Assembly: GCA_029261035.1 (NCBI GenBank)
Contig: JAJDCD010000008.1
Location: 401,967-465,966 of the forward strand
Reading direction: 5' to 3'
Source of the DNA: Candidatus Omnitrophota bacterium
Lineage (GTDB): Bacteria; Omnitrophota; Omnitrophia; Omnitrophales; JACROU01
DNA length: 64,000 bases
In this document: positions 20,193 to 60,300 of the stretch, one piece after another
Numbering within the stretch: position 1 is the stretch's first letter
Layout of the letters: every line of letters begins with the position of its first letter
Notes under the pieces: generated by a model
Seen by the model: only the letters and a program-made list of their open reading frames with translations
What the model was told of the DNA's origin: nothing
Database searches by the model: none
Position numbers and translations under genes: made by a program

Positions 20193-20741
20193 TTAGGGGC
20201 TATTTGGCATTTCAAGCTTGTCCAATATTTCACGAAATCTAGCTAGCTGTAACCTCTCATCACCCAGTTTTACAATTTCAAGTAATCGACGGAGATGAAA
20301 ATGTTTGACAATTTGAGGAAAGGGATTTTTTGTGAGAACTTCACGTATCCCCTGAGGAAGATTTAGGATTCGCAGAAGCTTAGCGATATAGGACCAATCC
20401 TCCCCTGTCATCTCAGCTAATTGGCGGATACTTGAAGCACCTGTTGACTCCATCAATCGCTTGAAATATTCAGCTTTTTTTATGGGATTATTCTCAAGGC
20501 GCTTTTGAAAAATTCTGTGTTTTTGAAGATCTTTTTGGGTGGGAATCAAGCCGGTTTTAAGGCTATTTGGTCGGTCCTCAAGAACAAAAACTCTTTTACC
20601 TGACTTGTAAATGCTATAGAATGATTCAAAATAATCAAACGAACGGGAAATCGCTACTTGGGAAATTAGTTCGTCGAGCGTCCGAGTGGGGACCCCATAT
20701 AAAAAAAGCCATCCAAAACGGATGGCTTTTTTTATGCCCAT
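20193..20741 (-). CDS. ParB-like HTH domain protein, start uncertain
   Basis: Open frame of 182 codons. The middle, STGASSIRQLAEMTGEDWSYI followed by KLLRILNLPQGIREVL, is a KorB/ParB-type helix-turn-helix; the end HLRRLLEIVKLGDERLQLARF is the matching downstream helix. No ParB N-terminal nuclease/CTPase motif is visible. The first 20 codons lie inside a perfect 14-bp hairpin that also occurs at 24653-24685 without a gene, so the true start is probably downstream (no convincing ribosome site seen). It may be a fragment of a partition-type or transposon-borne regulator. Its neighbours are the Qat operon and the repeat-flanked modular genes. Confidence 0.6.
   Translation of the reverse strand: MGIKKAIRFGWLFLYGVPTRTLDELISQVAISRSFDYFESFYSIYKSGKRVFVLEDRPNSLKTGLIPTQKDLQKHRIFQKRLENNPIKKAEYFKRLMESTGASSIRQLAEMTGEDWSYIAKLLRILNLPQGIREVLTKNPFPQIVKHFHLRRLLEIVKLGDERLQLARFREILDKLEMPNSP
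20701..20733. terminator. Bidirectional hairpin terminator
   Basis: AAAAAAAGCCATCC and GGATGGCTTTTTTT pair perfectly over 14 bp with loop AAAAC; either strand ends in a T-run. It lies beyond modular gene 1 and overlaps the beginning of the ParB-like open frame. Confidence 0.85.
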
Positions 20742-20761
20742 GGTGAGCGACGGGACTTGAA
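20741..20761 (-). other. tRNA 3'-end-like fragment
   Basis: On the minus strand TTCAAGTCCCG continues to CGCTCACCA. This has the T-loop consensus TTCAANT and a terminal ACCA, but only five bases between the T-stem and ACCA (seven are needed) and no 5' part of a tRNA. The same fragment is at 24693-24713 with one change. It may be a relic attachment site; it is not a functional tRNA. Confidence 0.4.
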
Positions 20762-21026
20762 AAGAGGCCCGACCAGTTTATATAAGATGAAATAAAAATA
20801 GAGCTGACTCAATGTCAGGTCTCTTTTCATTGAATTCCTTAGGAGGGCCGAATGGCCGACCTGGAGTAAGTACTTACGACCAGTAAGTAACGAACGTAAG
20901 GCGCCAAGTCCCTCGACTGAGAAACCTTAGCAATTCCAAACCAATTCAACATTCAACAACTGACCCCCAAAATGCAAACTCAAATGTTGGATTGTGTTCA
21001 TATCGTGTTGATGAACACTTAAGGAA

Positions 21027-24000
21027 TTATGCTGCTCGTGCTATGGCTAAATCCGCTTCATGGGATTGAACTAGGGCTAATAAAGCTTCCCCTACCGCAG
21101 AGAAGAATCCATCTACTTTCCTTAATCCGTATTTCGTCAGGAAGGCTAATGGGTTCTCTGATTGAGTGTAGAGTAAAGCTACTCCTAAAAGCCCATTCTC
21201 TTCGTTTGGATATCTAAACTTATTGTCTCCGACTAATGTGAAGTCTTCTGCTGGATCAATGGTTCGAGATAAATGAAGATTATGTTGGGCTTTACGTATT
21301 CCCTTTGCAGCCTCTCTCGCATTTTGTGGAGTGAAGTGTATGTTTGGTAGATTAAGCAATGGTTGTTTATCATACGAACCTGCATTAGTAACCACCACTT
21401 GTAACTGCTTTGGATTCCTCGCTGCTAGTTTGAAGATTTCATCCAGTTGAGCACGAGAGAAGTTGTCTATGTCACGTCCGATGAAAACATTTATGGATTC
21501 TTTTAGGTTGTCTAGGACAGAAACATTTACAGAACCCAAACTCTTCGCATCGGCTTCATCTTCTGTTCCCAATGATGCCCCACTCACTCTCTCTGGAAAC
21601 ACTTCATTAGGGAATAAACCTTGTTCGTATTCTGTGAAAGCAGGATCAATGTTGGCGTACAAGACGCGAACGGTTCCGTCGTTGCCTACAGTCACAAACT
21701 TTTTTTGATCAGGAGTTATAACAACATCTTGAATTCCTCCACTATGTCCTTCTAGTCGTTGGCGCTCTTCTCCTGTCTGGATATCCCACATCCGTAGAGT
21801 TCCATCTCGATACCCTGTTACAATCTGTTGCCCATCAGGAGTGATGGTTAGAACATCATCAACAAATCCACCATCCTCTTCAATATCACGATGCCCTCTA
21901 AACATCAGAAGCCGTTCCCCTGTATTTATATCCCAAACTCGAACAATTCCATCTTCACTGCTGGTTACAACCTTCTTGCTATCCGGGGTAATCGTAATGA
22001 CCGTTACACTATCTGCTTCTTGCATAGGATTTAGATCAAAACCAGGAATTCGTTGTTGGGTTTCTGTATCCCACACTTCTAAACGTCGGCCTTCATCCAT
22101 AAAATTAAGGCTCGTCAAAGCCATTCGTTTGTTATCAGGGCTTAAAGCAACAAAGGCTGCAGACGGGATTGCTTCTGATTCAATCATATAAAGACTCTCT
22201 TGGGTTTTCCAATCCAAAACTTGCACTCTTGTTACCCATTCTCCTACGAGATCATTAGGAGCTGGTTCACTAATGACAAGATAACGTATAAACAAGCTCC
22301 CATCCCGACTAAAAGGTGTACTTCGATAAAATATCTCATGCGGTGTAGATGGTGATACTGTTAATGATTCAAAAGGTGTCCAAAACAAAGTGTTAATTCC
22401 TTGATTCTGGGATATTAAAACTTTATTTCCATCAGGAGTAAAATAAGCAGCATCAGCATCAGAAGCGGATGCTGTTCTTTTTCCCGTTAACATGTCCCAA
22501 ATAGTAACCCTTTGATCTAACCCTATAGTCACAATTTGACTTCCATCTGGATGAATTGAAACTCTGTCTAGTGGACTTCCATAATTTGCTACTACCCGAC
22601 TCCTTAACCTTTCTCCATCCCAACTGTAAAGACTATCTATCACCCTATTTAAGCTCGGCAAATCCTCTCTTTCGAGAACTGCTTTCACACCACCCGCTCT
22701 TCCCACTGCTGCTAATAATGCCTTTAAATCTTCCTCATCTTCATGCGCTCCATATTGCTTCAGTGCTGCTTTAACTTTGTCTCTATCTGTCCCCAAACTC
22801 TTTGCATCGACTTCATCTTCTTCTGTCACAACTCCACCTTGAGCTGTTGTCTCCCATCCTTCTTTCAACCGATCCAGCTGTGTCAAAACTCGTTCTAGGC
22901 CAATAGCATCAATGCTCTCTAAAACCTCTAAAACCTCTGGGGTGTGTTTGTGGGGAACGTAATATTCTTCTGTTGTACCATTAGTTAATTTAAATACTTT
23001 ATCAAGTTTTCGATAAAACTCCTCTTTTGCATCCTCACTTAGCTCTTCATATTTTCTAAAAACATCATCAATCCTATCTAGCTGCTCTTTTACTCCTTGC
23101 TTAGAATCAATCCCTAAAGAAAGTATTATCGGAACAAAAAGAGATGCTTCTGCTTCTTCAAAAAATCTCATGCTCCAATTTCTTACAAACCTCTGATAGT
23201 CTTCATCATTATTTTCGGCTACCATCTCCAATGTAAGATCTAATTTCTCCCAAAAAGCTATAAAATGCCCTCCCCAATCCTCACCACCACCCCCCTCTAG
23301 AACAAGGTTTTCAATAAAGGCTATAAAAAAATTAAGATTAAAAGTAGAAGGAGCTAACACTCCAAATCTCACAGCCCTAGTTAAAGAAATAAGAGGATCG
23401 TAATGACTACCGCCAACCTGATTTACTCGACTAGCGTAATAAAAAAACATTGTTTCCATCATCTCTCCATCTATCACTCCTGCTTGAACAGCTTTCCCTA
23501 AACTTAGAAGAGGATCGAAATAAATATAAAATTCATGGTTAGCATCAGCATTTACAATACTACGGTCTAATAACTTACCTAACACTGAAGGGTCTGCTTC
23601 TCTATCTCTAACTGCTTCTATTAACCTTCTCAGAGATTCAAAATCTTCATCGCTCCCCCCCGTCGTGAAACCATGCGTAATTTTTAAAAAGCGCTCGACA
23701 TCAAGTAAACTTTTGTCAGCACCACCCTCTTTAACTGCCTGGGCAACAATCACTAAAAAACCAGAGATCTTCTCTAAATATCTACCCTCCTCCCTCCACT
23801 TTACATAACTAGTATTCGTTTCTGATACAGCTTTTAACAACGCAACAACGTCTTCTGTGGTCTGACCCGTCACATCCTTCAATTCCATTAATAATTCAAA
23901 TGCTTCAAAAGCATTTGCTGTTTCACTTAAAATCTGAAGTACTTCTTTCTGGCTAATATTATACGACTCGCTAATAAATTTCCTCATTTCACCTGCCACT

Positions 24001-24374
24001 GCATCCTTAAAGAAATCACCCAATTCTTCATTACGAAGTAATAGAGTTAATGATTGTATTATTTGCGCATTAGTACGGCCTGCCCTTATAAGTTTTTGTA
24101 TATATTCAAAAATCAACGCAGTGTCTTTCCCAGACTTCATTTGTTTTTCCAAATCTACCAAATCCCTGTCTGTCCCCAAACTCTTAGCATCTGCGTAATC
24201 TGGCTGCTCAGCATCCCTACCTTCTAATAATGCTTCTTCGTAAATAGATTGTGGTCTTGCTGCATACAAAGGAGTGGCATATTCAAAGATATTAAAAAGT
24301 GTGAAGAAAATGGACAGTAAAATAGTAGTGTTTTTGTGGAATATAGGTAATCCTGGTTTAGACTGACACTTCAT
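21027..24374 (-). CDS. Secreted modular WD40 protein 1 (A[KQ]SLG family)
   Basis: 1115 residues. Signal peptide (about 15-38, ending TPLYA) followed by ARPQSIYEEA. AKSLG linkers occur at 63-67, about 524 and about 943, plus ASLG near 932. Module order: helical repeat region (about 75-520), a short conserved helical piece (KVKAALKQYGAHED ... LLAAVGRAGGV, about 530-590), a WD40 propeller (about 600-905, blades such as DGIVRVWDINTGERLL and DGTLRMWDIQTGEE), then an unknown C-terminal domain (about 950-1115) ending SHEADLAIARAA. No anchor is visible, so it is periplasmic or secreted. Its signal peptide, conserved piece and C-terminal domain recur in modular protein 2. Function unknown. Confidence 0.82.
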   Translation of the reverse strand: MKCQSKPGLPIFHKNTTILLSIFFTLFNIFEYATPLYAARPQSIYEEALLEGRDAEQPDYADAKSLGTDRDLVDLEKQMKSGKDTALIFEYIQKLIRAGRTNAQIIQSLTLLLRNEELGDFFKDAVAGEMRKFISESYNISQKEVLQILSETANAFEAFELLMELKDVTGQTTEDVVALLKAVSETNTSYVKWREEGRYLEKISGFLVIVAQAVKEGGADKSLLDVERFLKITHGFTTGGSDEDFESLRRLIEAVRDREADPSVLGKLLDRSIVNADANHEFYIYFDPLLSLGKAVQAGVIDGEMMETMFFYYASRVNQVGGSHYDPLISLTRAVRFGVLAPSTFNLNFFIAFIENLVLEGGGGEDWGGHFIAFWEKLDLTLEMVAENNDEDYQRFVRNWSMRFFEEAEASLFVPIILSLGIDSKQGVKEQLDRIDDVFRKYEELSEDAKEEFYRKLDKVFKLTNGTTEEYYVPHKHTPEVLEVLESIDAIGLERVLTQLDRLKEGWETTAQGGVVTEEDEVDAKSLGTDRDKVKAALKQYGAHEDEEDLKALLAAVGRAGGVKAVLEREDLPSLNRVIDSLYSWDGERLRSRVVANYGSPLDRVSIHPDGSQIVTIGLDQRVTIWDMLTGKRTASASDADAAYFTPDGNKVLISQNQGINTLFWTPFESLTVSPSTPHEIFYRSTPFSRDGSLFIRYLVISEPAPNDLVGEWVTRVQVLDWKTQESLYMIESEAIPSAAFVALSPDNKRMALTSLNFMDEGRRLEVWDTETQQRIPGFDLNPMQEADSVTVITITPDSKKVVTSSEDGIVRVWDINTGERLLMFRGHRDIEEDGGFVDDVLTITPDGQQIVTGYRDGTLRMWDIQTGEERQRLEGHSGGIQDVVITPDQKKFVTVGNDGTVRVLYANIDPAFTEYEQGLFPNEVFPERVSGASLGTEDEADAKSLGSVNVSVLDNLKESINVFIGRDIDNFSRAQLDEIFKLAARNPKQLQVVVTNAGSYDKQPLLNLPNIHFTPQNAREAAKGIRKAQHNLHLSRTIDPAEDFTLVGDNKFRYPNEENGLLGVALLYTQSENPLAFLTKYGLRKVDGFFSAVGEALLALVQSHEADLAIARAA

Positions 24375-24651
24375 TTAGACAAAGTCCCCTTTGGGTAAAG
24401 GATACCATATTAAATTATATTGTAGAAATACCCAAAAATTACCCGCCGCGTGAGAGTCTGCCTAGTATACCCACTACCCCCGGGGTACCCCCGAAAGCAA
24501 GTTTGATAAGAATTGTAAGGTCTGAAATAAAAGGGCTTATTAGGTCTATTAGGAGGCTAAAACGGGTATGTTCATAGGGATACTTAAGGAAAATTGTTTT
24601 AAGCTACGTTGAGGAAATAGGTTCTAAGTTCATCTAGACAGTGACCCCATA
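24375..24651 (-). promoter_or_regulatory. Duplicated 5' leader of modular gene 1
   Basis: This 277-base stretch matches 28882-29152 almost throughout by eye. On the minus strand it holds a conserved TATAAT box (near 24415-24422), a GC-rich palindromic block TACCCC/GGGGTA (near 24473-24488), and, just before the ATG, CCTTT-ACCC-AAAGG, a small hairpin whose right arm is the Shine-Dalgarno AAAGGGGA. Such pairing could restrict ribosome access. The far end (TACGTTGAGGAAATAGGTTC ...) also recurs at 31098-31146. Confidence 0.65.
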
Positions 24652-24885
24652 TAAAAAAAGCCATCCAAAACGGATGGCTATTTTTATGCCCATGGTAAGC
24701 GACGGGACTTGAAAAGAACGACGCCAAGTTTATCACGCTGAAATAAATAAGGAGCTGACTCAATGTCAGGTCTTTATTTATTGAAGTCATTACAAGGAGT
24801 GAATGGCCGACCTGGAGTAAGTACTTGCGACCAGCAAGTAACGAACGTAAGGCGCCAAGTCCTCGACTAGAGAAGCTTTAGCACT
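24645..24885. repeat. Structured repeat, copy A, downstream of modular gene 2
   Basis: Second copy of the 250-base repeat seen at 20692-20940, with the same order of hairpins and the tRNA-like string at 24693-24713. The hairpin at 24653-24685 has one change in its T-run (GGCTATTTTT). Together with the leader at 24375-24651 it fills the whole 553-base gap between the two modular genes; no gene is seen there. Confidence 0.8.
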
Positions 24886-24927
24886 CTTAAATTACACCCA
24901 GCAAACTATTAAACTTCTAATTAAAAA

Positions 24928-27900
24928 CTACGCCGCTCGTGCTATAGCTAAATCTGCTTCGTGGGATTGAACTAAGGCTAACAAAGCCTCCCCTACTGCT
25001 GAGAAGAATCCATCTACTTTTCTTAATCCATACTTCGTTAGGAAGGCAATCTGATTATCTGATTGAGTGTAGAGCAAAGCTACTCCTAAGAGGCCATTCT
25101 CTTCGTCTGGATATCTAAACTTGTTGTCTCCAACTAATGTGAAGTCATCTGAGGGATTTATTGTCTTGGACAGATGAAGGTTATGCTGAGCTTTCCGTAT
25201 TCCTTTTGCTGCTTCTTTCGCACTCCGTGGGGTGAAGTGTATATTTGGCAGATTCAGTAATGGATGTTTATCATAGGATGGCGCATTAGTAACCACCACT
25301 TGTAACTGCTTTGGATTCCTTGCTGCTAGTTTGAAGATTTCATCTAGTTGAGCTTGTGAGAAATTATTGATGTCACCACCATGAACAAATATATTTGTGG
25401 ATTGTTTTAATCTATCTAAGACAGAAACATCTACAGCTCCCAAACTCTGTGCATCTACTTCTTCTATTGGAACCTCTGATGCCCCTAAACTTGCCGCCAC
25501 AATTACTTGGCCATCTGTCACACTTCCTTGCCAACGAGCAGTTCCATCATCAAAAACAACCTCTAAGTCTTTCCTTACCCCATCCCGAAGTTTTCCTGCA
25601 TTATTTGGATCTTGAAATAACTCTTTTATTTCTTCTTCAGTTACAGACGTTCTTCTTAGAATTAAGCTTCTTAATTCCTTCAACTCTGACAATTCCACTA
25701 ATTCACGAATATCCTCATTTCCTGTTAAATCAAGTACTTTTAATCCCTTTATCTGAACTAGTTGTGGAATAGCTAAATAACTTTCTAATTCTGCATCTTT
25801 AGCGATTAGCTCTTCTAATTTTGGAAGACGGGATAATCTACCATACTCTGTCATGTATTTATTTCCACTCAAATTAAGTTTCCTCAAACTTTTAATTTCT
25901 ATAAGTTCATCCAGATTATCATTAGTGGCATCAAATGTAAGTGATATATTTAACTCTTCTAATTTTGAAAGTTTCGATAAACCTATAAAGGAGGGGCTAT
26001 AAAAACCGAGATCTTCATCCATGTCCATGTCCACATCATCAATATAAAGATTCTCTGTCTGCATATAAAGCACTTCTTCTAAAGAGAGTTTTTTCAAACT
26101 TTTAATGTTCCCAATATCATCGATAGACGGCTTTCCAAGTGTAGAATTGTTTAAGTCTAAAGTTTCTAAACCTGGAATAGTAGATAGAGCTCCTAATTCA
26201 GTAAAGCTACTCAATTCTAAAGTGAGTTTTTTCAAGCCCTTATTTTCTGCTATTTGAGCAACAACTGTAGGATCACTTATATTTTCTCCTATCAACTCCT
26301 CCAATTGAATTGGTGCTAAAGAACCAATGTCAAATGTTGGGTTTCCCACATATAAAGTACCCTTTACACCAAATGTCTTTCCCTCTATTTCTATCTTATA
26401 CATTGCTCCGGAAGTAAGTTCATCTACTTGATTCACCACCCTTTTTTCATGTTCTTCAAAAAAAGAAGTCGCAAAAGGAGAAATATCTTCGTTGCTCACA
26501 AATCTAATGAAAGCATCCTCAGCTTCAGCTCTATTATCATCAACACCAAAATATTTTGGATTTAAAAATGAGAGGACAGCTCCAACATTTTCTACAGTTA
26601 ATCCCCTAGACTTAATGAATGCGAATCCATACATTAGCATATGACCAGTATCCCCAAAAGTTGCTTTGCTCTTCAACTCATATAGACTCGTGTCCATATT
26701 ACCTAAACTCTGCGCATCTACACTTGCTCGAAGCCACTCTTCTTCATTCTGCGTTGGAGGCTCATCTTGAGACTCTCTTTCCCACTCTTCTTGCAATTGC
26801 TCCAGTTGTTTCAAAGCTTGATCCACACCTATATCGTCTGCTCTCCTTACTATTTCTAATACTTCCTCTTTTCTAAATTCCTTGTTTATTCCCGTAAAAA
26901 AGACTCCAACATCTTCTTTCATAATCTCTACTAGCTCCTTTAAGAACTCCACATCTAATACTTCCTCTTTCACTTCTCCTTCTTTTACCCTCATTCCCAA
27001 ACCTCTTAAAGAGTGAAATACCAGTGGTGAAAACGGTCCAGTTTTTTCTGCTATTGCTATCAAAAGTTCAGCGTCCAGCACGTCTGACTTTGCTTCTCCT
27101 TCTCTCACTGCTTCACTCAATCTTCTTAAAGCTGAAAAGGTAGTTTCCGGATAAACGTCTTCGTCAATCTCGGTAATCACACCTAAGAGCTTTTCAGCTT
27201 CCACTAACAAAATTTCTTTTTCACTATTGCCAATATATTTCATCAACGTTTCTGTTGCAGTTTCCTCTTCTTTCAAAATCTTTACTAATGTTGGATAATC
27301 TCTTTCCAACTCTTCCCAACTTAGCTTTAATTGTTGAGGTAATTCTGATGCTTCATACTGTTCCTTTGCTCCCAAACTCTGAGCTTGTACTTCACCTTCT
27401 GTTTCCAACGATGCTTCACTCACTCTCTCTGGAAATACGGTATTAGGAAAAAGACCTTCTTCAAACTCTTCAAATTCCGGCTTAATATTGGCATACCAAA
27501 TATGAGCTGTGGTTTTCCAAATACGTTCGTTCGAAGGACGACCTGGTTCAGAAGTATTTATATAACTCGTTGCAACAGCAATTCTTCCATCTTGACTAAC
27601 TTCTAAAGAAGACTGATTATTTTCAATCTCCCAAATATGTCCTCTAATCATCCATTCAACACTTTCTCCTGTATTCAAAACAGCCTGTTCTTCTCCTGTT
27701 TCCACATCCCAAATCTGCACAGAATCAATATCAGCCCCATCAGCCCCATCATCCCCCATCATCAACACTTCTCTGCTATTCAAACTAGTAAACACCATAT
27801 AATAACGATGCTCTTGGTTTCCAAAAGATATCTTCTCCCCCGTTTTCAAATCCAAAATCCAATGAGGACCATCTTCACTTACTCCGATTAATTGTTTACT

Positions 27901-28881
27901 ATCCGCTGTTATAGCTACTGCACGAAGATTATCAAATGGCCCTAACATTCTAGATTCAGCTTTTTTTTCAACATCCCATATTCGCACCAATATTGGGTAC
28001 CCATACTCTTGACCTTCTGGTCTATGGAGTGTCACAATCTTGCTTCCATCTGGACTAATTACAACTGTCGGATCAATAGTATTTTTAAGCCCTCTCACAA
28101 CAACCTCTTCTTGCCCCGTGTTTATATTCCATACCCGCAGTGCATCATCTCCACTCAGAGTTACAAACTTGGTCCCATCTGGAGTAATGGCAACTGCCAA
28201 TATGCCATTCTCATTATCTTTCACCACCAATTTTTCTATTCCAGTTTTCACATCCCATACCCGTGCTGTTCCATCCGAACTTGCCGTAACAATATCATTT
28301 CCATCCGAACTAATTGCGACCCCATTAACACGGCCTTCATGCCCTCTCAAAATCAGTTTCACATCTCCAGTTTCTATATCCCAAATATGCACATTATAAT
28401 CACCTCCCGATGTTGCTACACGCATCCCATCTGGGGTTATTGCAAATCTATACAAAGAATCCGTTCTCGTTGGAATTGACAATTTTTTAGCTCTTAAATT
28501 CCCTCCAGACCATGTATAAAGTTCACTCACCACCTTTCTTAATGCAGGTAAGTTCTCTCTTTCCATTACTGCCTCAACACCGCCCGCTCTTCCCACTGCT
28601 GCTAATAATGCTTTTAAATCTTCTATGTCTTCATGAGCTCCATATTGCTTCAGTGCCGCTTTAACTTTGTCTCTGTCTGTCCCTAAACTCTTCGCGTCTG
28701 CGTAGTCTGGCTGCTGAGCATCACTAGCTTTTAATACTGCTTCTTCGTAAATAGATTGCGGTCTTGCTGCATAAAGAGGTGTGGCATATTCAAAGATATT
28801 AAAAAGCATGAAGGAAATGAACACAAAAATAGCGATGGTTTTGTGCAATATAGGTAATCCTGGCTTAGACTGACATCTCAT
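24928..28881 (-). CDS. Secreted modular WD40-LRR protein 2 (A[KQ]SLG family)
   Basis: 1317 residues. The N-terminus copies protein 1 (signal peptide, ARPQSIYEEA, AKSLG at about 64, KVKAALKQYGAHED). Then come a WD40 propeller (about 140-470, e.g. DGTARVWDVKTGIEKL), a linker with QAQSLG near 503, a helical region (about 510-705), DAQSLG near 726, an uncharacterised module (about 727-860), leucine-rich repeats (about 865-1095, e.g. LKVLDLTGNEDIREL, LRKLNLSGNKY), ASLG and DAQSLG near 1133-1150, and the shared C-terminal domain ending SHEADLAIARAA. Each module is bounded by the SLG motif. WD40 and LRR suggest protein binding outside the cytoplasm. No enzyme motif or anchor seen. Confidence 0.82.
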   Translation of the reverse strand: MRCQSKPGLPILHKTIAIFVFISFMLFNIFEYATPLYAARPQSIYEEAVLKASDAQQPDYADAKSLGTDRDKVKAALKQYGAHEDIEDLKALLAAVGRAGGVEAVMERENLPALRKVVSELYTWSGGNLRAKKLSIPTRTDSLYRFAITPDGMRVATSGGDYNVHIWDIETGDVKLILRGHEGRVNGVAISSDGNDIVTASSDGTARVWDVKTGIEKLVVKDNENGILAVAITPDGTKFVTLSGDDALRVWNINTGQEEVVVRGLKNTIDPTVVISPDGSKIVTLHRPEGQEYGYPILVRIWDVEKKAESRMLGPFDNLRAVAITADSKQLIGVSEDGPHWILDLKTGEKISFGNQEHRYYMVFTSLNSREVLMMGDDGADGADIDSVQIWDVETGEEQAVLNTGESVEWMIRGHIWEIENNQSSLEVSQDGRIAVATSYINTSEPGRPSNERIWKTTAHIWYANIKPEFEEFEEGLFPNTVFPERVSEASLETEGEVQAQSLGAKEQYEASELPQQLKLSWEELERDYPTLVKILKEEETATETLMKYIGNSEKEILLVEAEKLLGVITEIDEDVYPETTFSALRRLSEAVREGEAKSDVLDAELLIAIAEKTGPFSPLVFHSLRGLGMRVKEGEVKEEVLDVEFLKELVEIMKEDVGVFFTGINKEFRKEEVLEIVRRADDIGVDQALKQLEQLQEEWERESQDEPPTQNEEEWLRASVDAQSLGNMDTSLYELKSKATFGDTGHMLMYGFAFIKSRGLTVENVGAVLSFLNPKYFGVDDNRAEAEDAFIRFVSNEDISPFATSFFEEHEKRVVNQVDELTSGAMYKIEIEGKTFGVKGTLYVGNPTFDIGSLAPIQLEELIGENISDPTVVAQIAENKGLKKLTLELSSFTELGALSTIPGLETLDLNNSTLGKPSIDDIGNIKSLKKLSLEEVLYMQTENLYIDDVDMDMDEDLGFYSPSFIGLSKLSKLEELNISLTFDATNDNLDELIEIKSLRKLNLSGNKYMTEYGRLSRLPKLEELIAKDAELESYLAIPQLVQIKGLKVLDLTGNEDIRELVELSELKELRSLILRRTSVTEEEIKELFQDPNNAGKLRDGVRKDLEVVFDDGTARWQGSVTDGQVIVAASLGASEVPIEEVDAQSLGAVDVSVLDRLKQSTNIFVHGGDINNFSQAQLDEIFKLAARNPKQLQVVVTNAPSYDKHPLLNLPNIHFTPRSAKEAAKGIRKAQHNLHLSKTINPSDDFTLVGDNKFRYPDEENGLLGVALLYTQSDNQIAFLTKYGLRKVDGFFSAVGEALLALVQSHEADLAIARAA

Positions 28882-29152
28882 ATAGACAAAGTCCCCTTTG
28901 GGTAAAGGATACCATATTGAATTATATTATAGAAATGCCCAAAAATTCCCCGACACGTGAGAGTCTGCCTAGTATACCCACTACCCCGGGGTACCCCCGA
29001 AAGTAAGTTTGATAAGAATTGTAAGGTCTGAAATAAGAGTGCTTATTAGGCCTATTAGGAGGCTAAAACGGGTATGTTCAGAGGGATTTCTAAGGGATGT
29101 TATTTTAAGCTACGTTGAGGAAATAGGTTCGAAGTTCATCTAGACAGCGACC
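28882..29152 (-). promoter_or_regulatory. Duplicated 5' leader of modular gene 2
   Basis: Copy of the leader at 24375-24651, with the same TATAAT, a perfect TACCCCGGGGTA palindrome (near 28982-28993), and the CCTTT/AAAGG hairpin at the ribosome site. Its distal end carries the sequence that supplies the last codons and the TAG of the glycosylase gene at 29140. Confidence 0.65.
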
Positions 29153-29574
29153 TTTTCCCAAGAAGATATTTTTCCTGCGATGAGCTTAAAATAGGGATGA
29201 GCCTTTGTGGCTCGCTTTATATCGAGAGTTTTCAAATAAGCTGGGTCTCGCACTTTTAATTTGTTCTTTAACCACTCTAATTCGTATTTTAATTGTCCTC
29301 TTGTAACTGTAATTTTTTGAGTCGTGCGTTTCTTACCCAATTTACCTTCATCAAAAGAATAGCCTCTTGATTTCGCTTCTAAATAAACACCGTACAAATA
29401 AGTCGCAATGGCTGCTTTGGGATTACAATGCTCCTTGAAACGTTCCAGCTGAGGATGGTTCTTATACCCTTTTGTTTTTCCTTGAAGTACCTTTTGAGCA
29501 AGCAATCCTTCTCGCCACAAAGCAACAAGCCCTTTTGCATCAAGGTAACTCGGGTGTAAGCTCCAAAGCCTCAT
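29140..29574 (-). CDS. Pyrimidine-dimer DNA glycosylase / AP lyase (DenV-like)
   Basis: 144 residues. The start MRLWSLHPSYLDAKGLVALW and LAQKVLQGKTKGYKNHPQLERF are characteristic of the Pyr_excise (T4 endonuclease V-like) family; YLYGVYLEAKSRGYSF follows. It should excise UV-induced pyrimidine dimers. The last codons (KVAV, stop) coincide with the start of a repeat also found at 24651 and 31146, so the C-terminus may have been set by the repeat. It overlaps the SDR gene by 4 bp (ATGA). Confidence 0.82.
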   Translation of the reverse strand: MRLWSLHPSYLDAKGLVALWREGLLAQKVLQGKTKGYKNHPQLERFKEHCNPKAAIATYLYGVYLEAKSRGYSFDEGKLGKKRTTQKITVTRGQLKYELEWLKNKLKVRDPAYLKTLDIKRATKAHPYFKLIAGKISSWEKVAV

Positions 29575-51334: not shown

Positions 51335-54300
51335 TTATTCAAACGTCCAACCTGCATTACCTCCTAAATTAGATACATTACTACCTGCCGTAATAGCATT
51401 GCCTACATTCTGACTTTCCGACACTTTCAGATTTGATGTTGTCGTTGCTCCCTGAACATCTAATTCCCAAGCAACTCCTCCAAAGTTAGAAATAAGTGAC
51501 AACGTATTACCTACTCCACCCTGAAAAGTAAGCGCTCCCAAAATCGTCTGCCTGGATCCTCCGCCAAACCTTAATGTATCCGCTGTTATAGTAGTTTTAG
51601 TAAAATTAAAGAAAGTTGTCGTTCCTAGAATTTTTTGACCTTGACCATCTAGAACAACGGTTCCAGAATTATGAGTAAAGGTTCCGCCCGTGCGAACAAA
51701 GTCTCCTGCTACATTCAACTGGCCTGAAGGTGCTGTGAAAGTTCCTCCAGACTGCGTAAAACCTCCGTCTATATCAAGAGAACCAGCAGCTCCTGAAAAT
51801 ACCCCTGCAATCAATTCAAAGTCAGAAGAGAATGTTGTGGTTCCAGAACTTGGGCCAACAAGGGTTACGTTAGCCGCATTAAGAACAACTTTTGGTAATG
51901 TTCCTCCAGATGCTAAATTTATCACTCTGGTTCCTGTACCAATAATATTAATTGTGACACTTCCACCATCAAAATTACTGTTATGTGTTAGCCCCCCAGA
52001 CAATTCAATCACCGACCGTCCTACAAAACCATCCAACAAAGATAAGTTACCTAGAACAATCACTTTGTTAGAGCCCGACAATCCCAAATTAATTCCTACG
52101 CTCTGAGCAATAATTAAGTTATTAAACGTAATATCATTATCTGCAACAATACTGGCTACCGCTCCATCAAAGTTAACAGTACCGTTATTAGCATCAAAGA
52201 CCACACCTGTAATAAAAGTGAGTTTACCTTCTAAAAATAAAGTTCCTGAAGGAGCTGTGAAGGTTCCTGAATTCAAACTCATGTCACCATCCACATCTAA
52301 ATTACCATCTCCCCCTACAAATAAACCATCATCTAAATTAAAGTTTCCAACTACCGTAGTGGTTCCAGATGTTGGACCATTTACAGTAACATTAGCAGCA
52401 TTTATTGTAATGTTTGGTAGTTTTCCTCCACCCGTTGTTAAATCAATGCTTCTTGTTGCCGTACCTGTAACTGTAATATTTCCAACATTTGTAGAATCAG
52501 CTCCATCAAAGCCTGTTCCCAAACTAATAGTATCTTTAACATCTACAATTCCATCCCCGCCCAATTCTCCATCTGTAAGAGTCAACGTTCCATCGACTTG
52601 CAACGTATCTCCAGAACTAATATCTAAAGTCTTTCCATCCGTTTTATTCAAAGTTAAATTGTTGAGCGTCAACAACGTTTGAACATCTACTGTTGAGTTT
52701 TCTCCATCAAAAGCAAGTGTTCCACTATTATGATTAAAGACCCCGCCAGAAACAGTAAATCCATTTTCAACAGACAGGGTACTTGAAGTAGATGTAAATG
52801 TTCCTCCACTTAAACTAAAGAAAGAGTTCACATCTAGAGCTCCACTTCCACCATTAAACGTTCCCCCACTTTGAACAAAACCTTGATCATCAAACGTCAG
52901 GTTAACAGTTCCTTGGTCTACTTCACCAGCTTGTAAGTCAAAGAACTCTTCAAACGTAACCGTACCTGCTCCTGCAGTTGCTAAGGTTACATTGGCTGCA
53001 TTTAATACAACGTGAGGTAAATTTCCTCCACCATTCAAAGTGATTGTTCTTGTAGCTGCTCCTGTAATTTCTATTAAACCGCTACCACCATCAGCTCCAG
53101 TATTTAAAGTCATCCCATTAGTGACATTAATCGTTCCGCCACTGTCTGTAATTCGACCATTACTAAATACAAAGGTTCCATTAACGTTCAGAGTATCTCC
53201 GTTTGCTACCGTAAATGATTTTTGATCTACTTTATCAATTGTTAAATTATTAAATGTTTCTGAAGTAGGAACATCGGCTGTACTATTTCCTGGAGATCTA
53301 AATACAACAGTACCTCCATTAGGGTCAAAGGTTCCACCTGTTCGCGTGTAATTGGTTCCAATGTATAAATTTCCTGTTGGCGCTGTTAAGGTTCCACTAC
53401 TAACCAATATATCAAAACTGGTAGAAACATCGCCTCCTTGTCCGGTTAACGTTCCTCCGTTAATCGTCAATCCATTATTAAAAGTTTGAAGTTGAGTACT
53501 TGCTAAGTAGTTCCCTCCACTCAATGTACTTCTAAGCAGAACAAAGAACTGATTTCCATTTGCGTCAAACGTTCCATTGGTCAAATCAAACGTTCCAAGT
53601 AAATTCTTTTTACCATCTAAGTTAAAAGTATCTAAAGCATCGATAGGGCTAATCAGTAAATGTTTAAAATCAATTGTTCCAAAATCATGAATCGTATAGT
53701 TGTCTGCTAAAGTGTCTCCATCACCTACATAAAGGAATGTTCCAGAGTTCCTATCTTGAGTTAATCCTGTAATAGTTTCATCTCCAACGAGACGAACTGT
53801 CCCGTCATTAGAGAATGTTGCTCCTGTCATCGTCCAATCTTGCCCATTAAGATCTAACACACCTGCATTGAGGTTGAAAGCGGTGGTAACTGTTAACGTA
53901 TTACTGGTTAATTGCAAAGTCGCAGCACCTGAATGTGTAATAGTAGCAAAGCTACTGCTTCCACTATTGAATGTCTGAGTCCCTGTAGTTTGATTAAAAA
54001 TCAAAGTAGAAGTTCCTGCATTAAACGTGCCTGAATTTGCAAAGTTACCTGCAACCGTCAGCGTATTGGAGATAGCATTAAAGACAGCTGAGGATTGAAT
54101 AACTAAGTTACCACCACTTCCTTGAGTCGTTACATCGCCTCCTGGTGCATAAGTCTTACCTGAACTTACAATAACTTGAATTCCTGTATTAACAGTTAAG
54201 TCGCCACCAGAAACAGAATATGGAATATCTGTATCACTCAAAGCTCCCTTAGCTGTATTTAAACTTGCATTTGTAATTGGGCCAGCACTAGCATTATGCA

Positions 54301-57300
54301 AGGTTAATGTACTGCCTAAGATACTAAATCCCGTAATATCTGTATCTGCATCTAAACTAATGGTAGAAAAGGCTCCATCAACAGCATTATCATTAATATA
54401 AACTAGAACATCATCATTTGCAGTTGCTGTTGTTGCTAAACTAAAAGCCCCTGTTACACCGTCTGTAGTCGTTGAACCTTCAACAACTCCATTAATAACA
54501 AAAGTGATTGTCGCACTCGTTAATGGAGTAACACCCGCATCACTATAAGCAATACCACTGATAGTAACGCCAAACCAAAGTATTGTATTTCCTGAATCCA
54601 CACTATTAGCAGGTAGAATTGCAGGTCCTGTTAAATTAACACCATCTTTAACATCCACCAAACTAATCGTTCTTGTTCCCTGAGGATCAACATTCCATTG
54701 ATTTCCATCTGAAGAGCTTCTCAACAATAAACGGTTAGAAGCATCAAAGCCTTGCAACGTAGTAGTCCCTATAATTGTTTGTGTTGTTCCAACCCCAATA
54801 GTAAGAGTTCTATCTCCTTCAGCTTGAACTCCTGTAACAGTCTTAGTCAAATTATTAAATGTACTTGACCCAAGAATTTGTTGTCCCAAACCATCAAGAA
54901 CAACCGTTCCGCTATTATGGGTGAATGTTCCAGAATTTGAGTAGTCACCAGCAATAGTAAAGGAGCTTGTAGCTGGGGCCGTAAATGAAGCCCCTACATT
55001 AATTGTAAAGTTTCCATTAACATCAATTACTGTATCTGATGAATTCAGAACAACTGCACCTGAATTCAATGTGTAATTATTTAATGTAATTGTATTACTT
55101 GGAGAATATTGGCCTGTGCCAATTGTTAAGTTAAATGGATCAACACCACCAACGATTTGAGAAAGAGTTGTTGTTCCTGTTCCTGAAATTAATGTTAATG
55201 TTTCAGCAACTCCACCAGCTGTTCCATTAACAATTCCAGAAATTGAAATATTTCCAGCTACACCAGAACCTGTATTGAGGGTAACACTCAAACCTTCTCC
55301 GATAACAACACTATCGCTAATAGTAATATCTTCTCCACTAGTGACAATATCTGCATTTAAGGTTGTTGTGGCTCCAGGACCATCAAGAGTTACTGAACCA
55401 TTACCTGTTATTTGTCCATTAACAGTAATGCTTCCAGCACCTGCGGGAGAACGAATTGTAACATCATCATCAAAAGTTACAGCGTTAACCGTAACAGCTG
55501 CTGTTCCATCACTTCTACCAATTGTAATAGAACTAAAACCATCCGCTATTGCAGCAATATCTGCTACAGAAACATCTAACGTTCCAGCACCACCAGCAAC
55601 ACCAATGGTTGTTGCTGCTGTAGAAGGTTGTAAGACAAGTGTTCCTGTTCCAGAAACAGAATCAGCACCACCCGTAAAATCAACTCCATCAGCTGTAAGG
55701 GTTAATCCATTAGCTCCTACCGCTACTGTACTACTAAAGGTAACCGCATTAACTCCTGAAGTTATAATAGCATCACTATTTAATGTCACACCTCCAGCAA
55801 ATAAAAATTTTGTTAAGGCATTCAGTGTTCCAGAAGGTCCAATATTTAATATCACTGGATTAGTTAAACCTAACGCTACTGTATTATCGGTTATGTTATG
55901 TGTTGAAGAACCTGTAACCGTAATAGATGCTGTTCCTCCTTCATAAGCAGCCCCAACAATCATTGTTCCCTGCGCTTCAATCGTTCCTGGACCATTGGCT
56001 ATTCCTGTATTTAATAATAATTCATTGGTTACAATAATATTATCTCCTACAGAAATATCTATCATATCTCCAGCACCTTTATCAAACTCTAAGTCATACA
56101 AAGTTAGGGTTCCAGGGACATCAAAAATAGAATCTCCACCAATAAAATCATCAAAATCTACTTGCCCTAAGTTAGCTAAGAAAGTTCCTGCCGTCATTAT
56201 AAAATCACCATTAAGCTGTAATTCTCCACCATTTAAATCAAAGCTTCCGCCATTTAAATTAAAATCATCTAAGACTTCTAACAAACTACCATTAGCATCT
56301 AAAGTTCCATCATTCATAATAAGGTCACTTTGGAATAAGACCCAACCCCCATTAGAATCAAAAGAGCCGCCATTCTGTGTATAGTTATTATTTATTTCTA
56401 TTCGAGTAGCCGTAGCTGCAGATTGGAAGAAGAAAGTTCCAGAGGTAAGTGTTAACGCTCCATTTAAATTAAAGTACTGTGATGCTCCAGTGGTAATTGC
56501 ATTAACTGTCCCCGCACCTACATTGATAACCAAATCTCCATCAAAAGATTCTCCTTCATCAAAGGTGAAAGAATGTGTTGTTGCTCCGGTCACTGTTAAA
56601 TCAGCACTTCCACCATCAAAGCCAGAGGTAACCAAAACATCCCCTTGCGCTTCCATCGCTCCAGGACCATCAACAGCACCAGAACCTAATTCTAATAAAT
56701 TTGCAGATATCAATGTATCACCAGCTGAAATTGTTATTGTAAAACCATCGTTTGCGTCTAATTCTAAATTATAAAATGTTTCTGTTGTTGCTACATCAAT
56801 AGCTAAATTAGAAGCTCCACCAATATCAACGTTACTGGTATCAGGATTAAAAGTAGCAAGCGGACCAATTGTAAAGCTATTACCTTCAATAAATATTTCA
56901 TTCGTACCGGCATTCAAAGTTCCTCCTGTTTGAGAAAAAGGACCTCTCACTTCTAGGTTAGAACTAAAACCATTATACGTACCACCTGTCATGCTAAATG
57001 TATCAATAATAAGTGTTTGCGTTCCATCACTATTAAACGTACCATTATTAATCGTTAAATCATCCGATTCAAATTCTCCGGCTCCTCCACCTAAATCTAT
57101 CTGACCATTATTTAAAGTAACCAAACCAAAATTTAAATAGAACCCTGCATTAACATCAATAACACCACCACTCATAGTTAATCCTAATGACGTGTTAACT
57201 TCTCCTCCATTAACATCAAGAGTTCCTCCTGTGATCACGGCAGCTCCTGTGTGAATAATATCACCACCATTAACATCAAAGGTTCCACCATTAATCGTCC

Positions 57301-60300
57301 ACGTTCCAGCAATATCAAAATTATCTCCACTAGGTCCTGTTTGGAAGAAAACTGTTCCTGAATCTAATGTAAAATCACCACTAAAATCAAACCCTAGATC
57401 AGCGCCTGTTCCTACCATATTGAGTGTTCCAGCACCAATATCAACAATGAAATCATTTGAAATAGCTCTAGAGTTACTAACCGTAAATGTATGAACACTT
57501 GCTCCTGAAATAGTTACTAGAGCATTTCCTCCATCATAAGAATCCGAAACAGAAAGGTCTCCCGTAACCGTTAAACCTCCTGGCCCATCGAACCCACCAT
57601 CATCCAAGTTTAGAGTTCCATTCACTCTCATGGTGTTATTGAGTTCTATAGATGTTAATTCATCATCATCAACAGGATTTAACGTTACATCGTTAAAATC
57701 TTGCGTAACAACTATGGAGCTATTTTCATCATTGAAGAAAATGTCAGGAGAGCTTGCAGACGAAGGAAAAAAGTTTACTAAACCAGTTAATGCATTAAAG
57801 GTTGCTGTAGAGTTCTTTCTAAAATGATAACGCGCAATAAGCGTTCCATCCGCATTAAATGTTCCGCCAAATAATTTAAAGTCATCCTTAACATCAATCG
57901 TTCCACCATTTAAGTTTGTAATACCACCATTACTGATATAGTCATCATCGGTTGTGATACTACCTCCAACACCTACAGTAACTGTTCCAGAATCAATGAT
58001 AAAGTCCTCATCTCCTCCGGTTACTGTAACCGTTCCTCCATTAACATTAAAGGTAGCTCCATCCACTTGAATAAACCAATCACTATCTAGGGTAGTCCCC
58101 GCAAGATCCCAGGTTCCTCCATCAAGACGCATTTCATCATCAACATTAATAACTGTTCCTGTTCCTCCATTAATATTTCCTGATGTAGAATCAAAATCAT
58201 CTCCTACAGTAACAGTCGCATTGGTTCCTGTATTAAACGTTCCTCCACTAATCAAAATATCTTCTGTCGTGGTCAAATCTCCACCATTTAAATTAAAAAT
58301 TCCACCGCTAATTTCAACAGAAATATCCGTCCCTGGAGCATTCTGAGCATCTAAAAGTCCTCCACCCCCAGAGTAGGTTCCTCCTGTTTGGTTATACACT
58401 TGAAGTTCAATGTTGTTAGCTCCTGGATTTAAGGTACCACTGATAAGATTTAATTGATCTAATGGAGTTGTTGCTCCTACATTGCCACTTAAATTAATAT
58501 TTCCTGAAGTACCAGCTCGAAGCGATAAATCTTCTGTATAAGCTGTTGTTCCATCTATCGTTCCTTCAAATATAATATTTGCACCACTTGCAGAAGCTCC
58601 TCCATTTGTTGTGTCTAGAAGCACATCTGCTCCAAGGACTACTGCATCGCTAAAAGTAATTATGTTTCCAACGGTTACCACATCAGCGTTCAATGTTGTT
58701 GTTGCTCCTGGACCATCTAAAGTAATAGATGCATTATCAGCACCTGTTATCTGACCATTAACCACAATAGATCCACCTGATTGTGGAGATTGGATTGTAA
58801 CAGGATCATTAAACGTAACCGCATTTACTGTAATCGCTCCTGTTCCATCACTACGACCCATTGTAATACCACTAAAGCCGTTAGCTAAAGCTGCAACATC
58901 TACAGTTGAAAGAGCCAAAGTTCCTGCTGCTCCAGCAATCCCAATCGATGTACCTGAAGCTGCTGGTTGTAAGAGTAAAGTTCCAGTACCAGAAACTGTT
59001 CCAGCTCCTCCAGTAAAATCAATGCCATTTGCCGTAATTGTTAACGCATTGGATCCAAGTGTAAGGTTATCAGCAAAGGTAAGAGAATTAGTTCCAGCAT
59101 TAAATGCTGTTGGATTACTATTCGTCACTGTTCCATCAAATTGAACATTATCATTAAATGTAATTGAACTAGCTACACCTGTGAAGTTAACATTATTAAA
59201 ATTAGAACTATTTACCGTAATATTAATTGGATCTGCGTCGCTAAACACAAATGTTCCTGAAGAACTAAAAGCTCCTCCAGTTGCATCAAAAATGTCTCCA
59301 GCAACAGTTAACTGATTTGCTGCCATATTCAATGTTCCATTAATATCAAGATCTTCTGTACTGACAGTTCCTCCTGGAGTAAAAGTCTTTCCTGAACTAA
59401 TAATTAAGTTTATTCCAGAATTTAGAGATAAATCCCCTCCACTCACAGAATAAATAATATCGGTGTCTACCTGAGCTCCTTTAGCGGTGTTTAACAATAC
59501 ATTAGTTACAGGCCCTGCATTTTCGTGTGTTAAGGTTAAGCTATTAGCTGTGATAGAAAGACCTGTAATACTCGTTGCTCCAGAAGCAATCGTAAGCACA
59601 TTTCCTAATGTGGTTCCATTATCATCAATATAGATTAATATATTATTTCCGTTTGAAATAGAAACACCTGCAAATGTAAAGGCTCCTGAACCACCTGCCG
59701 TAGTAGTTGTTCCTTCATTTGAACCATCAATAATCAAAACTAACGTCGTGCCATCAACAACACCTGTGGCAACACCTGAAATATCAGCTCCAAACCAAAG
59801 CACATTATTTCCTGAATCAGTACTATTTGCTGGAGAAATAGAAGGGGATGATAAATTGACACTATCTTTAACATCCACAAAACTAACTGCTCTCGTTCCC
59901 TGAGGATCGATACTCCATTGGTTTCCATCACTACTACTTCTTAATGACAATAATTGACCACTAGCTCCTTGAAACGTCAATGTTCCTGTTACCGTAACTG
60001 TTCTTCCAACTGTAAATGTTAAAGTATCTGCAGTTGCAACGGTTTTAGATAAATCATTAAACGTAGTTCCAGCCACTGCTACAGAAATTGTTTGTGATGT
60101 TCCTACTAAATTAACTATTCCTGTTCCAGCATTAAACGTTCCTCCACTGTGTAAAAAGTCTCCAGACAAGTTCAATGTGGATGAATCCATATTAACCACA
60201 CCACCTTGAATATCCCAATCTCCGGCTTCTGTGATAGTTCCGCTTCCAGCATTAAACGTTCCACTAGTGAAAGTGGTTGTGTTGGCTGTCATGGCAAGAT

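What the first reader, a model, noticed from the sequence alone, without database searches (positions are those of the whole stretch)
20692..29152. Tandem cassette of two secreted modular proteins with constant ends and exchanged middles
Two adjacent genes (21027-24374, 24928-28881) share signal peptide, a short helical piece and a 160-residue C-terminal domain, yet differ in between: helical repeats plus WD40 in one; WD40, helical region, unknown module and LRR in the other. Leader and 3' repeat are duplicated with each gene. Constant ends with variable binding modules are what one expects of a secreted recognition or adhesion system that diversifies by module shuffling. No function is known to me.
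Basis: partly seen in the sequence, partly recalled or inferred. Interest (0 to 1): 0.78.

Follow-up and report, generated by a model that had tools for sequence, protein, structure and literature searches.

The report
Linker-punctuated exported polyproteins of Omnitrophota
Two neighbouring secreted-protein genes turn out to be small members of a large family of exported bacterial 'bead-string' proteins, in which complete enzymes and binding domains are strung together with one short, lineage-specific peptide between the beads; the string is probably cut there, and this would explain many of the mysterious giant genes of the uncultured phylum Omnitrophota.

Summary
A (21027-24374) and B (24928-28881) share a signal peptide/leader and a 170-aa C-terminal domain (CTD). 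Their middles are the same two modules in opposite order (A helical-WD40; B WD40-helical-LRR). Every module border carries a short peptide, [VASILT]-x-[AG]-x-S-L-G. The edges of the DNA-similar blocks between A and B fall on these linkers.

In the 2.7-Mb genome (an Omnitrophota MAG) this linker occurs 90 times in 17 sequenced stretches of signal-peptide proteins of up to 8086 aa; about 2 are expected by composition. It joins whole domains: phosphoglucomutase, inositol phosphatase, Nudix, PPDK, phosphatases, HTH arrays, WD40. In other families of the order the same architecture occurs in frames of up to 14273 aa with other linkers: RSE[LMVTA]R (169 counted) or GFGA. No linker of 95 lies inside a Pfam domain (12.8 expected). 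Linker codons vary synonymously, so the peptide is what is kept.

Best explanation: exported polyprotein precursors, cut or recognised at a lineage-specific linker, that diversify by recombination at linkers. Module shuffling is well supported. Cleavage, the protease and any host-directed role are inferred. 'Adhesion' as such is not supported. No description of the linker system was found in the papers searched.

The parts
21027..24374 (-). Gene A, 1115 aa: signal peptide/leader | helical module | WD40 module | CTD, separated by [AG]xSLG linkers
24928..28881 (-). Gene B, 1317 aa: signal peptide/leader | WD40 module | helical module | unknown+LRR module | CTD, separated by [AG]xSLG linkers
24192..24374 (-). 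A: signal peptide plus ARPQSIYEEA leader piece (residues 1-61)
   Evidence: leader cluster of 15
28699..28881 (-). B: signal peptide plus ARPQSIYEEA leader piece (residues 1-61)
24174..24191 (-). A linker 1, DAKSLG
   Evidence: DNA block 24163-24646 ends 11 bases past it
22791..22808 (-). A linker 2, DAKSLG
   Evidence: DNA block 22657-22808 starts exactly here
21567..21584 (-). A linker 3, SGASLG
   Evidence: DNA block 20691-21581 ends inside it
21534..21551 (-). A linker 4, DAKSLG, in front of the CTD
   Evidence: DNA block 21535-21660 ends here
22809..24173 (-). A helical-repeat module, homologous to the B module at 26719-27369 and to four modules of two C16 proteins
21585..22790 (-). A WD40 module with short helical start, homologous to the first B module
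21030..21533 (-). A CTD (168 aa, ends ARAA); 8 copies in the genome
28681..28698 (-). B linker 1, DAKSLG
   Evidence: DNA block 28547-28698 starts exactly here
27388..28680 (-). B WD40 module
27370..27387 (-). B linker 2, QAQSLG
   Evidence: DNA block 27371-27496 ends here
26719..27369 (-). B helical module
26701..26718 (-). B linker 3, DAQSLG
25501..26700 (-). B module of unknown N-terminal part plus leucine-rich repeats
   Evidence: LRR_4
25483..25500 (-). B linker 4, VAASLG
   Evidence: DNA block 24643-25485 ends inside it
25438..25455 (-). B linker 5, DAQSLG, in front of the CTD
24931..25437 (-). B CTD (169 aa, ends ARAA)
20691..21026 (-). 3' non-coding repeat unit behind A, matching 24643-24927 behind B
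24643..24927 (-). 3' non-coding repeat unit behind B; contains a hairpin followed by a T run (terminator-like by eye)
24375..24646 (-). 5' leader repeat in front of A, matching 28882-29152 in front of B
28882..29152 (-). 5' leader repeat in front of B

Best explanation
A and B are Sec-exported modular precursors of a polyprotein type. Shown: signal peptide; complete domains in tandem; one short lineage-specific peptide at each border ([VASILT]-x-[AG]-x-S-L-G in this family, RSE[LMVTA]R or GFGA in others); a common end domain; and module exchange with breakpoints at the linkers. Inferred: a trans-acting protease recognises the linker and frees the modules during or after export. In this family the -3/-1 pattern fits a cut after the [AG], as in V-x-A|x-S-L-G. 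Also inferred: because each linker is a short homologous DNA stretch in a permissive place, unequal recombination between linkers adds, drops or reorders modules without breaking domains. For A and B the probable products are a helical-repeat protein, a WD40 propeller, an LRR protein and the CTD; the CTD may serve sorting or release. Where the products act (periplasm, cell surface, or a partner cell) is not shown.
For: (1) [AG]xSLG occurs 83 times in 38.0 kaa of own concatemers against 2.2 expected by composition; permuted motifs occur 1-6 times; outside concatemers one real hit remains in about 30 kaa. Unsupervised k-mer enrichment recovers A.SLG in family f1, RSE.R in f5/f3/f8 and GFGA in f2. 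The sets exclude each other: RSExR 0 times in 52 kaa of f1. (2) 0 of 95 linkers lie inside Pfam domain envelopes, 12.8 expected, p<5e-5; for example PGM 581-1187 sits between linkers at 513 and 1222. (3) Peptide-level conservation: the RSELR codons vary freely, and SLG uses all Leu and Gly codons and four Ser codons. (4) The fourth residue of RSExR is genome-specific (G021 28 L of 29; G037 9 T of 16; 0 of 5000 shuffles reach this), as expected if one trans-acting factor per genome reads the site. (5) 85 of 90 linkers have V/A/S/I/L/T two residues before the [AG], background 42%, the -3/-1 pattern of signal-peptidase-like cleavage. (6) The stand-alone N-terminal-domain protein of this genome ends 61 aa after GGFH, where the first linker lies in concatemers (54-192 aa after it). 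(7) DNA-block edges fall on linkers; linker-cut modules cluster by type with positions shuffled.
Against: No proteomic or biochemical evidence of cleavage. No protease identified: signal peptidase I is a single copy in nearly all these genomes whatever their linker. The Ser codon is biased to AGY (81% against 32% background), so part of the linker uniformity comes from DNA copying rather than repeated selection. Several concatemers contain ATP-, UTP- or DNA-dependent modules that would have no substrate in a periplasm. Signal peptides were judged by eye and hydropathy, not by a dedicated predictor.
Confidence: 0.6

Rival explanations
1. Uncleaved multi-domain secreted or surface scaffolds: the linker is a docking or spacing peptide bound by a scaffold or chaperone, or simply a flexible joint, and the chain works as one giant protein.
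For: Signal peptides and very long frames. Published work reads Omnitrophota giant ORFs as adhesins, coats or cell-wall weapons (PMC10066038; PMC12057145). No protease identified.
Against: A mere joint would not need an exact SLG or RSExR, nor a genome-specific fourth residue. Cargo is whole metabolic-type enzymes with no adhesive theme. Stand-alone versions end where the linker would be.
Confidence: 0.22
2. The linker is mainly a DNA element (recombination or duplication scar) that spreads by copying; the peptide has no function of its own.
For: Ser codon bias to AGY; DNA-similar blocks of A and B start or end at linkers; some inter-linker spacers look like translated intergenic repeats (L092).
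Against: Free synonymous variation, especially in RSELR (CGG AGT GAA TTG CGG, CGC TCC GAA CTT AGG, and so on). The motif is in frame at domain borders, and the peptide differs between families while the architecture is kept.
Confidence: 0.1
3. Secreted recognition/adhesion proteins diversifying by module shuffling.
For: WD40, LRR and helical repeats in A and B; shuffling.
Against: The same leader, linker and end domain carry enzymes and HTH arrays elsewhere in the genome, so the shared parts are not specific to recognition.
Confidence: 0.08

Closest known systems
Giant ORFs of Omnitrophota (Seymour et al. 2023, PMC10066038; West-Roberts et al. 2023 preprint, known here only as cited in PMC12057145)
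   Same: Same phylum; very long ORFs, reported there as having few annotated domains; several of the frames found here exceed 20 kb.
   Different: Those reports propose adhesins, coats or cell-wall weapons. The passages read do not mention linker peptides, a common N-terminal or end domain, enzyme concatemers or polyprotein processing; the preprint itself could not be read.
Euglena RBCS and light-harvesting polyproteins (PMC4938576)
   Same: N-terminal targeting signal; units separated by a short conserved linker peptide and released by proteolysis.
   Different: Units there are near-identical copies of one protein in a eukaryote; here the modules are unrelated domains in a bacterium and the linker differs between families.
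MARTX toxins (PMC5218395, PMC6315884)
   Same: Very large secreted proteins with constant ends and a variable, exchangeable set of middle domains.
   Different: MARTX has RTX-type end repeats and its own cysteine protease domain; the Pfam scan of A and B finds neither. To my knowledge there is no shared short consensus linker there, and the cargo here includes metabolic-type enzymes.
Viral polyproteins
   Same: Different proteins in one chain with a repeated protease site; site specificity differs between lineages.
   Different: Chromosomal bacterial genes with signal peptides; many different polyproteins per genome; no protease module recognised in A or B.

Membership tests
Polyprotein (processed precursor) | Several complete, separable protein units in one reading frame | tested here: met
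   Pfam domains complete and bracketed by linkers, 0/95 linkers inside domains; clean module clusters; stand-alone N-terminal-domain protein
Polyprotein (processed precursor) | A repeated recognition site at each unit border | tested here: met
Polyprotein (processed precursor) | Proteolytic release of the units at those sites | not testable with these tools
   needs proteomics; only the -3/-1 pattern of the site is suggestive
Polyprotein (processed precursor) | An identified processing protease | tested here: inconclusive
   S26 signal peptidase is essentially single copy in f1, f2 and f5 alike; other protease families not searched
Sec-exported proteins | Cleavable N-terminal signal peptide | tested here: met
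   basic n-region, hydrophobic stretch (KD15 1.7-2.7) and usually a small-residue cleavage site in the own and relative concatemers inspected; judged by eye and hydropathy
MARTX toxins | RTX-type repeats and cysteine protease domain | tested here: not met
   No such Pfam family among those listed for A and B (best 25 of 33-34 shown, WD40 models dominate)
Adhesins / cell-surface recognition proteins | Known adhesive domains or surface anchor (Ig-like, discoidin, LPXTG or similar) | tested here: not met
   Only WD40 and LRR found in A and B; sister proteins carry enzymes

The most novel reading that the evidence does not exclude
A dedicated bacterial polyprotein system: Omnitrophota export strings of up to about 14,000 residues holding many different enzymes and binding domains, release them by a protease whose site has co-evolved within each lineage (SLG, RSExR, GFGA), and supply them to the space outside the cell or to a partner/prey cell, where ATP-, UTP- and DNA-dependent modules would find their substrates. 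A good part of the phylum's giant genes would then be polyprotein genes.
Probability: 0.3. Interest if true: 0.95.

Novelty: new variant of a known kind. Interest (0 to 1): 0.85.

Why it matters
Giant ORFs are a recurrent unexplained feature of Omnitrophota, whose roles published work calls poorly understood (PMC10066038). If many are linker-punctuated exported polyproteins, each can be parsed into modules by eye, annotated module by module and tested by looking for peptide ends at predicted sites. It would also give bacteria a general heterologous polyprotein strategy, with a natural series of linker/protease pairs and a clear case of domain shuffling whose breakpoints can be read at DNA level.

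Tried and rejected
Old gene pair without exchange: rejected, module order is swapped and DNA blocks end at linkers. Chance motif: rejected. RNA or DNA signal as the conserved entity: disfavoured by codon variation. A specialised signal-peptidase paralogue as the cutter: not seen. Identifying the CTD and the N-terminal 'IQDAH' domain by sequence or by fold gave nothing reliable: models were low-confidence (mean pLDDT 60 and 56) and no PDB match reached E 1e-3. A resemblance of the IQDAH domain to TraB/ChaN/EreA-type folds is from memory and untested. The single-protein CTD scan of named genomes found nothing; the alignment scan gave six Omnitrophota records. Literature searches for polyproteins in Omnitrophota and for 'bacterial polyprotein' gave 0 papers.

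Full report
OBSERVATION. Genes A (21027-24374, minus) and B (24928-28881, minus) are intact ORFs. Both start with a signal peptide and the piece ARPQSIYEEA, and both end in a ~168-aa C-terminal domain (CTD). blastp between them gives the CTD at 73%, the leader at 62%, A 520-948 against B 59-505 (WD40) at 34%, and A 413-528 against B 617-727 (helical) at 33%. Pfam finds WD40 in both and LRR in B.

LINKERS. Reading the junctions shows the peptide [AG]-x-S-L-G at each border: A at residues 62, 523, 931, 942; B at 62, 499, 722, 1128, 1143 counted from its ATG. A blastn of the two loci gives four similar blocks: A 24163-24646 / B 28670-29152 (90%), ending 11 bases past linker 1 in both; A 22657-22808 / B 28547-28698 (86%), starting exactly at DAKSLG in both; A 21535-21660 / B 27371-27496 (75%), ending at the linker in both; A 20691-21581 / B 24643-25485 (78%), ending inside a linker in both. 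The other inner edges fade out inside homologous modules. The simplest history is recombination at linkers: A carries an extra helical module between two DAKSLGTDRD copies, and B carries the helical module after WD40, plus an LRR module.

GENOME-WIDE. The CTD occurs 8 times in this 2.70-Mb genome. Reading those loci and further ones found by the N-terminal domain gave 17 stretches with 90 linkers in 40.4 kaa; frames reach 8086 aa with 24 linkers (C18). For the 83 linkers of the set, composition predicts 2.2, permuted motifs occur 1-6 times, and outside concatemers one real hit remains. Cut at linkers, 98 modules of 60 aa or more form clean clusters: 15 leaders (always first), 8 CTDs (always last), 6 helical modules in four proteins at positions 1-6, 4 WD40 modules in four proteins at positions 1-6, and others. 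Clusters do not run across types, so the linker marks true borders.

CARGO. Pfam in linker-bounded modules: phosphoglucomutase/phosphomannomutase, UDPGP, inositol monophosphatase, PPDK_N and PEP-utilizers; sigma-70 region 4/LuxR-type HTH arrays, TPR, calcineurin-like phosphatase; Nudix, DUF218, DnaJ, and a second PGM in G002. In relatives: NAD-dependent epimerase, TPR, methyltransferases, aldolase II, CheR, HEAT. The PGM motif TASHNP is kept in both genomes.

RELATIVES. The CTD profile hits 18 of 145 genomes (own included), at the end of open frames of up to 12257 aa (a partial match lies in one of 14273 aa). There the linker is RSE[LMVTA]R (135 listed; 169 with five further genomes). The N-terminal IQDAH domain (A3) hits 77 of 117 Omnitrophota genomes, often with 16 or more copies (scoring stopped at 16 candidates per genome). 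Named records with the CTD are all Omnitrophica/Omnitrophota MAGs. Unsupervised k-mer counting recovers the linker of each family without being told: A.SLG in f1 (G000, G001, G002), RSE.R in f3, f5 and f8, GFGA in f2; more distant orders show none. [AG]xSLG and RSExR are nearly exclusive, and the fourth residue of RSExR is genome-specific.

WHAT SELECTION SEES. RSELR codons vary freely. SLG uses all six Leu codons and all four Gly codons, with a Ser bias to AGY. So the peptide is maintained, while shared DNA ancestry contributes. No linker of 95 falls inside a Pfam envelope (12.8 expected). 85 of 90 SLG linkers have V/A/S/I/L/T at -2 from [AG], so the consensus V-x-A-x-S-L-G fits the -3/-1 rule of signal-peptidase-like cutting. 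That rule is general knowledge; cutting itself is not shown.

MECHANISM. The anatomy (targeting signal, units, repeated site, end domain) is that of a precursor polyprotein; Euglena RBCS is a worked example with a signal peptide and linker decapeptides (PMC4938576). The constant ends with exchanged middles are also the logic of MARTX toxins (abstracts), but the Pfam scan of A and B lists no RTX or protease domain. Export of ATP-, UTP- and DNA-dependent modules suggests use outside the cell, perhaps in a partner cell; published work reads Omnitrophota as host-dependent or predatory (PMC10066038). That step is inference.

LITERATURE. Giant Omnitrophota ORFs are known and called poorly understood (PMC10066038; PMC11573180; PMC12057145). 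Searches for Omnitrophota with polyprotein, and for 'bacterial polyprotein', returned nothing. Subscription papers and preprints are not held, so absence is not proof; the West-Roberts preprint on giant genes was not read.

LIMITS. Completeness of the MAG is 95%. The concatemer set was collected by CTD or IQDAH hits, so other linker proteins may be missed, and the frequent Ala-Ala C-terminus is partly a selection effect. Folds of both constant domains are unsolved.

Noticed in passing
L080-L085, L087 and the CTD proteins (own genome): Most concatemers end in Ala-Ala (ARAA, SRAA, AIAA, ESAA, KQAA, KKAA, LQAA; exceptions RESA, ATMA). Members found without using the CTD also tend to, so a C-terminal AA may be a sorting or processing signal.
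   Followed up: partly
L071 and ORFs: A ~380-aa N-terminal 'IQDAH' domain (IQDAHxxxEAQ, EGxxG, GGFHxxxI) without Pfam or PDB match is present in 16 or more copies in many Omnitrophota genomes and also occurs as a stand-alone secreted protein (503-aa ORF, L086).
   Followed up: partly
L092 (G002): Spacers between successive linkers read like translated intergenic repeats (ILSPTQSGEESGWRRPDSSSASRPQNDKR and a near copy), which suggests that former intergenic DNA was taken into the reading frame.
   Followed up: no
L080 3761-4454 aa, L081 3001-3327 aa: Arrays of sigma-70 region 4/LuxR-type helix-turn-helix units inside an exported protein; unusual for a secreted chain.
   Followed up: no
window 20193-20741: The start of this ORF (MGIKKAIRFGWLFLYGV) lies in the 3' repeat of gene A, so the true start of the ParB-HTH-like gene is probably further in.
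   Followed up: no
window 51335-63955: A 4206-aa open frame of repeated GGTFNGGSGTH/FSNIGAGATFNHNGG-type units, no Pfam hit and no linker: a different kind of giant secreted protein.
   Followed up: no
window 29140-29574: Small ORF with a strong Pfam match to pyrimidine dimer DNA glycosylase (PF03013, E 2e-23) directly upstream of gene B.
   Followed up: no
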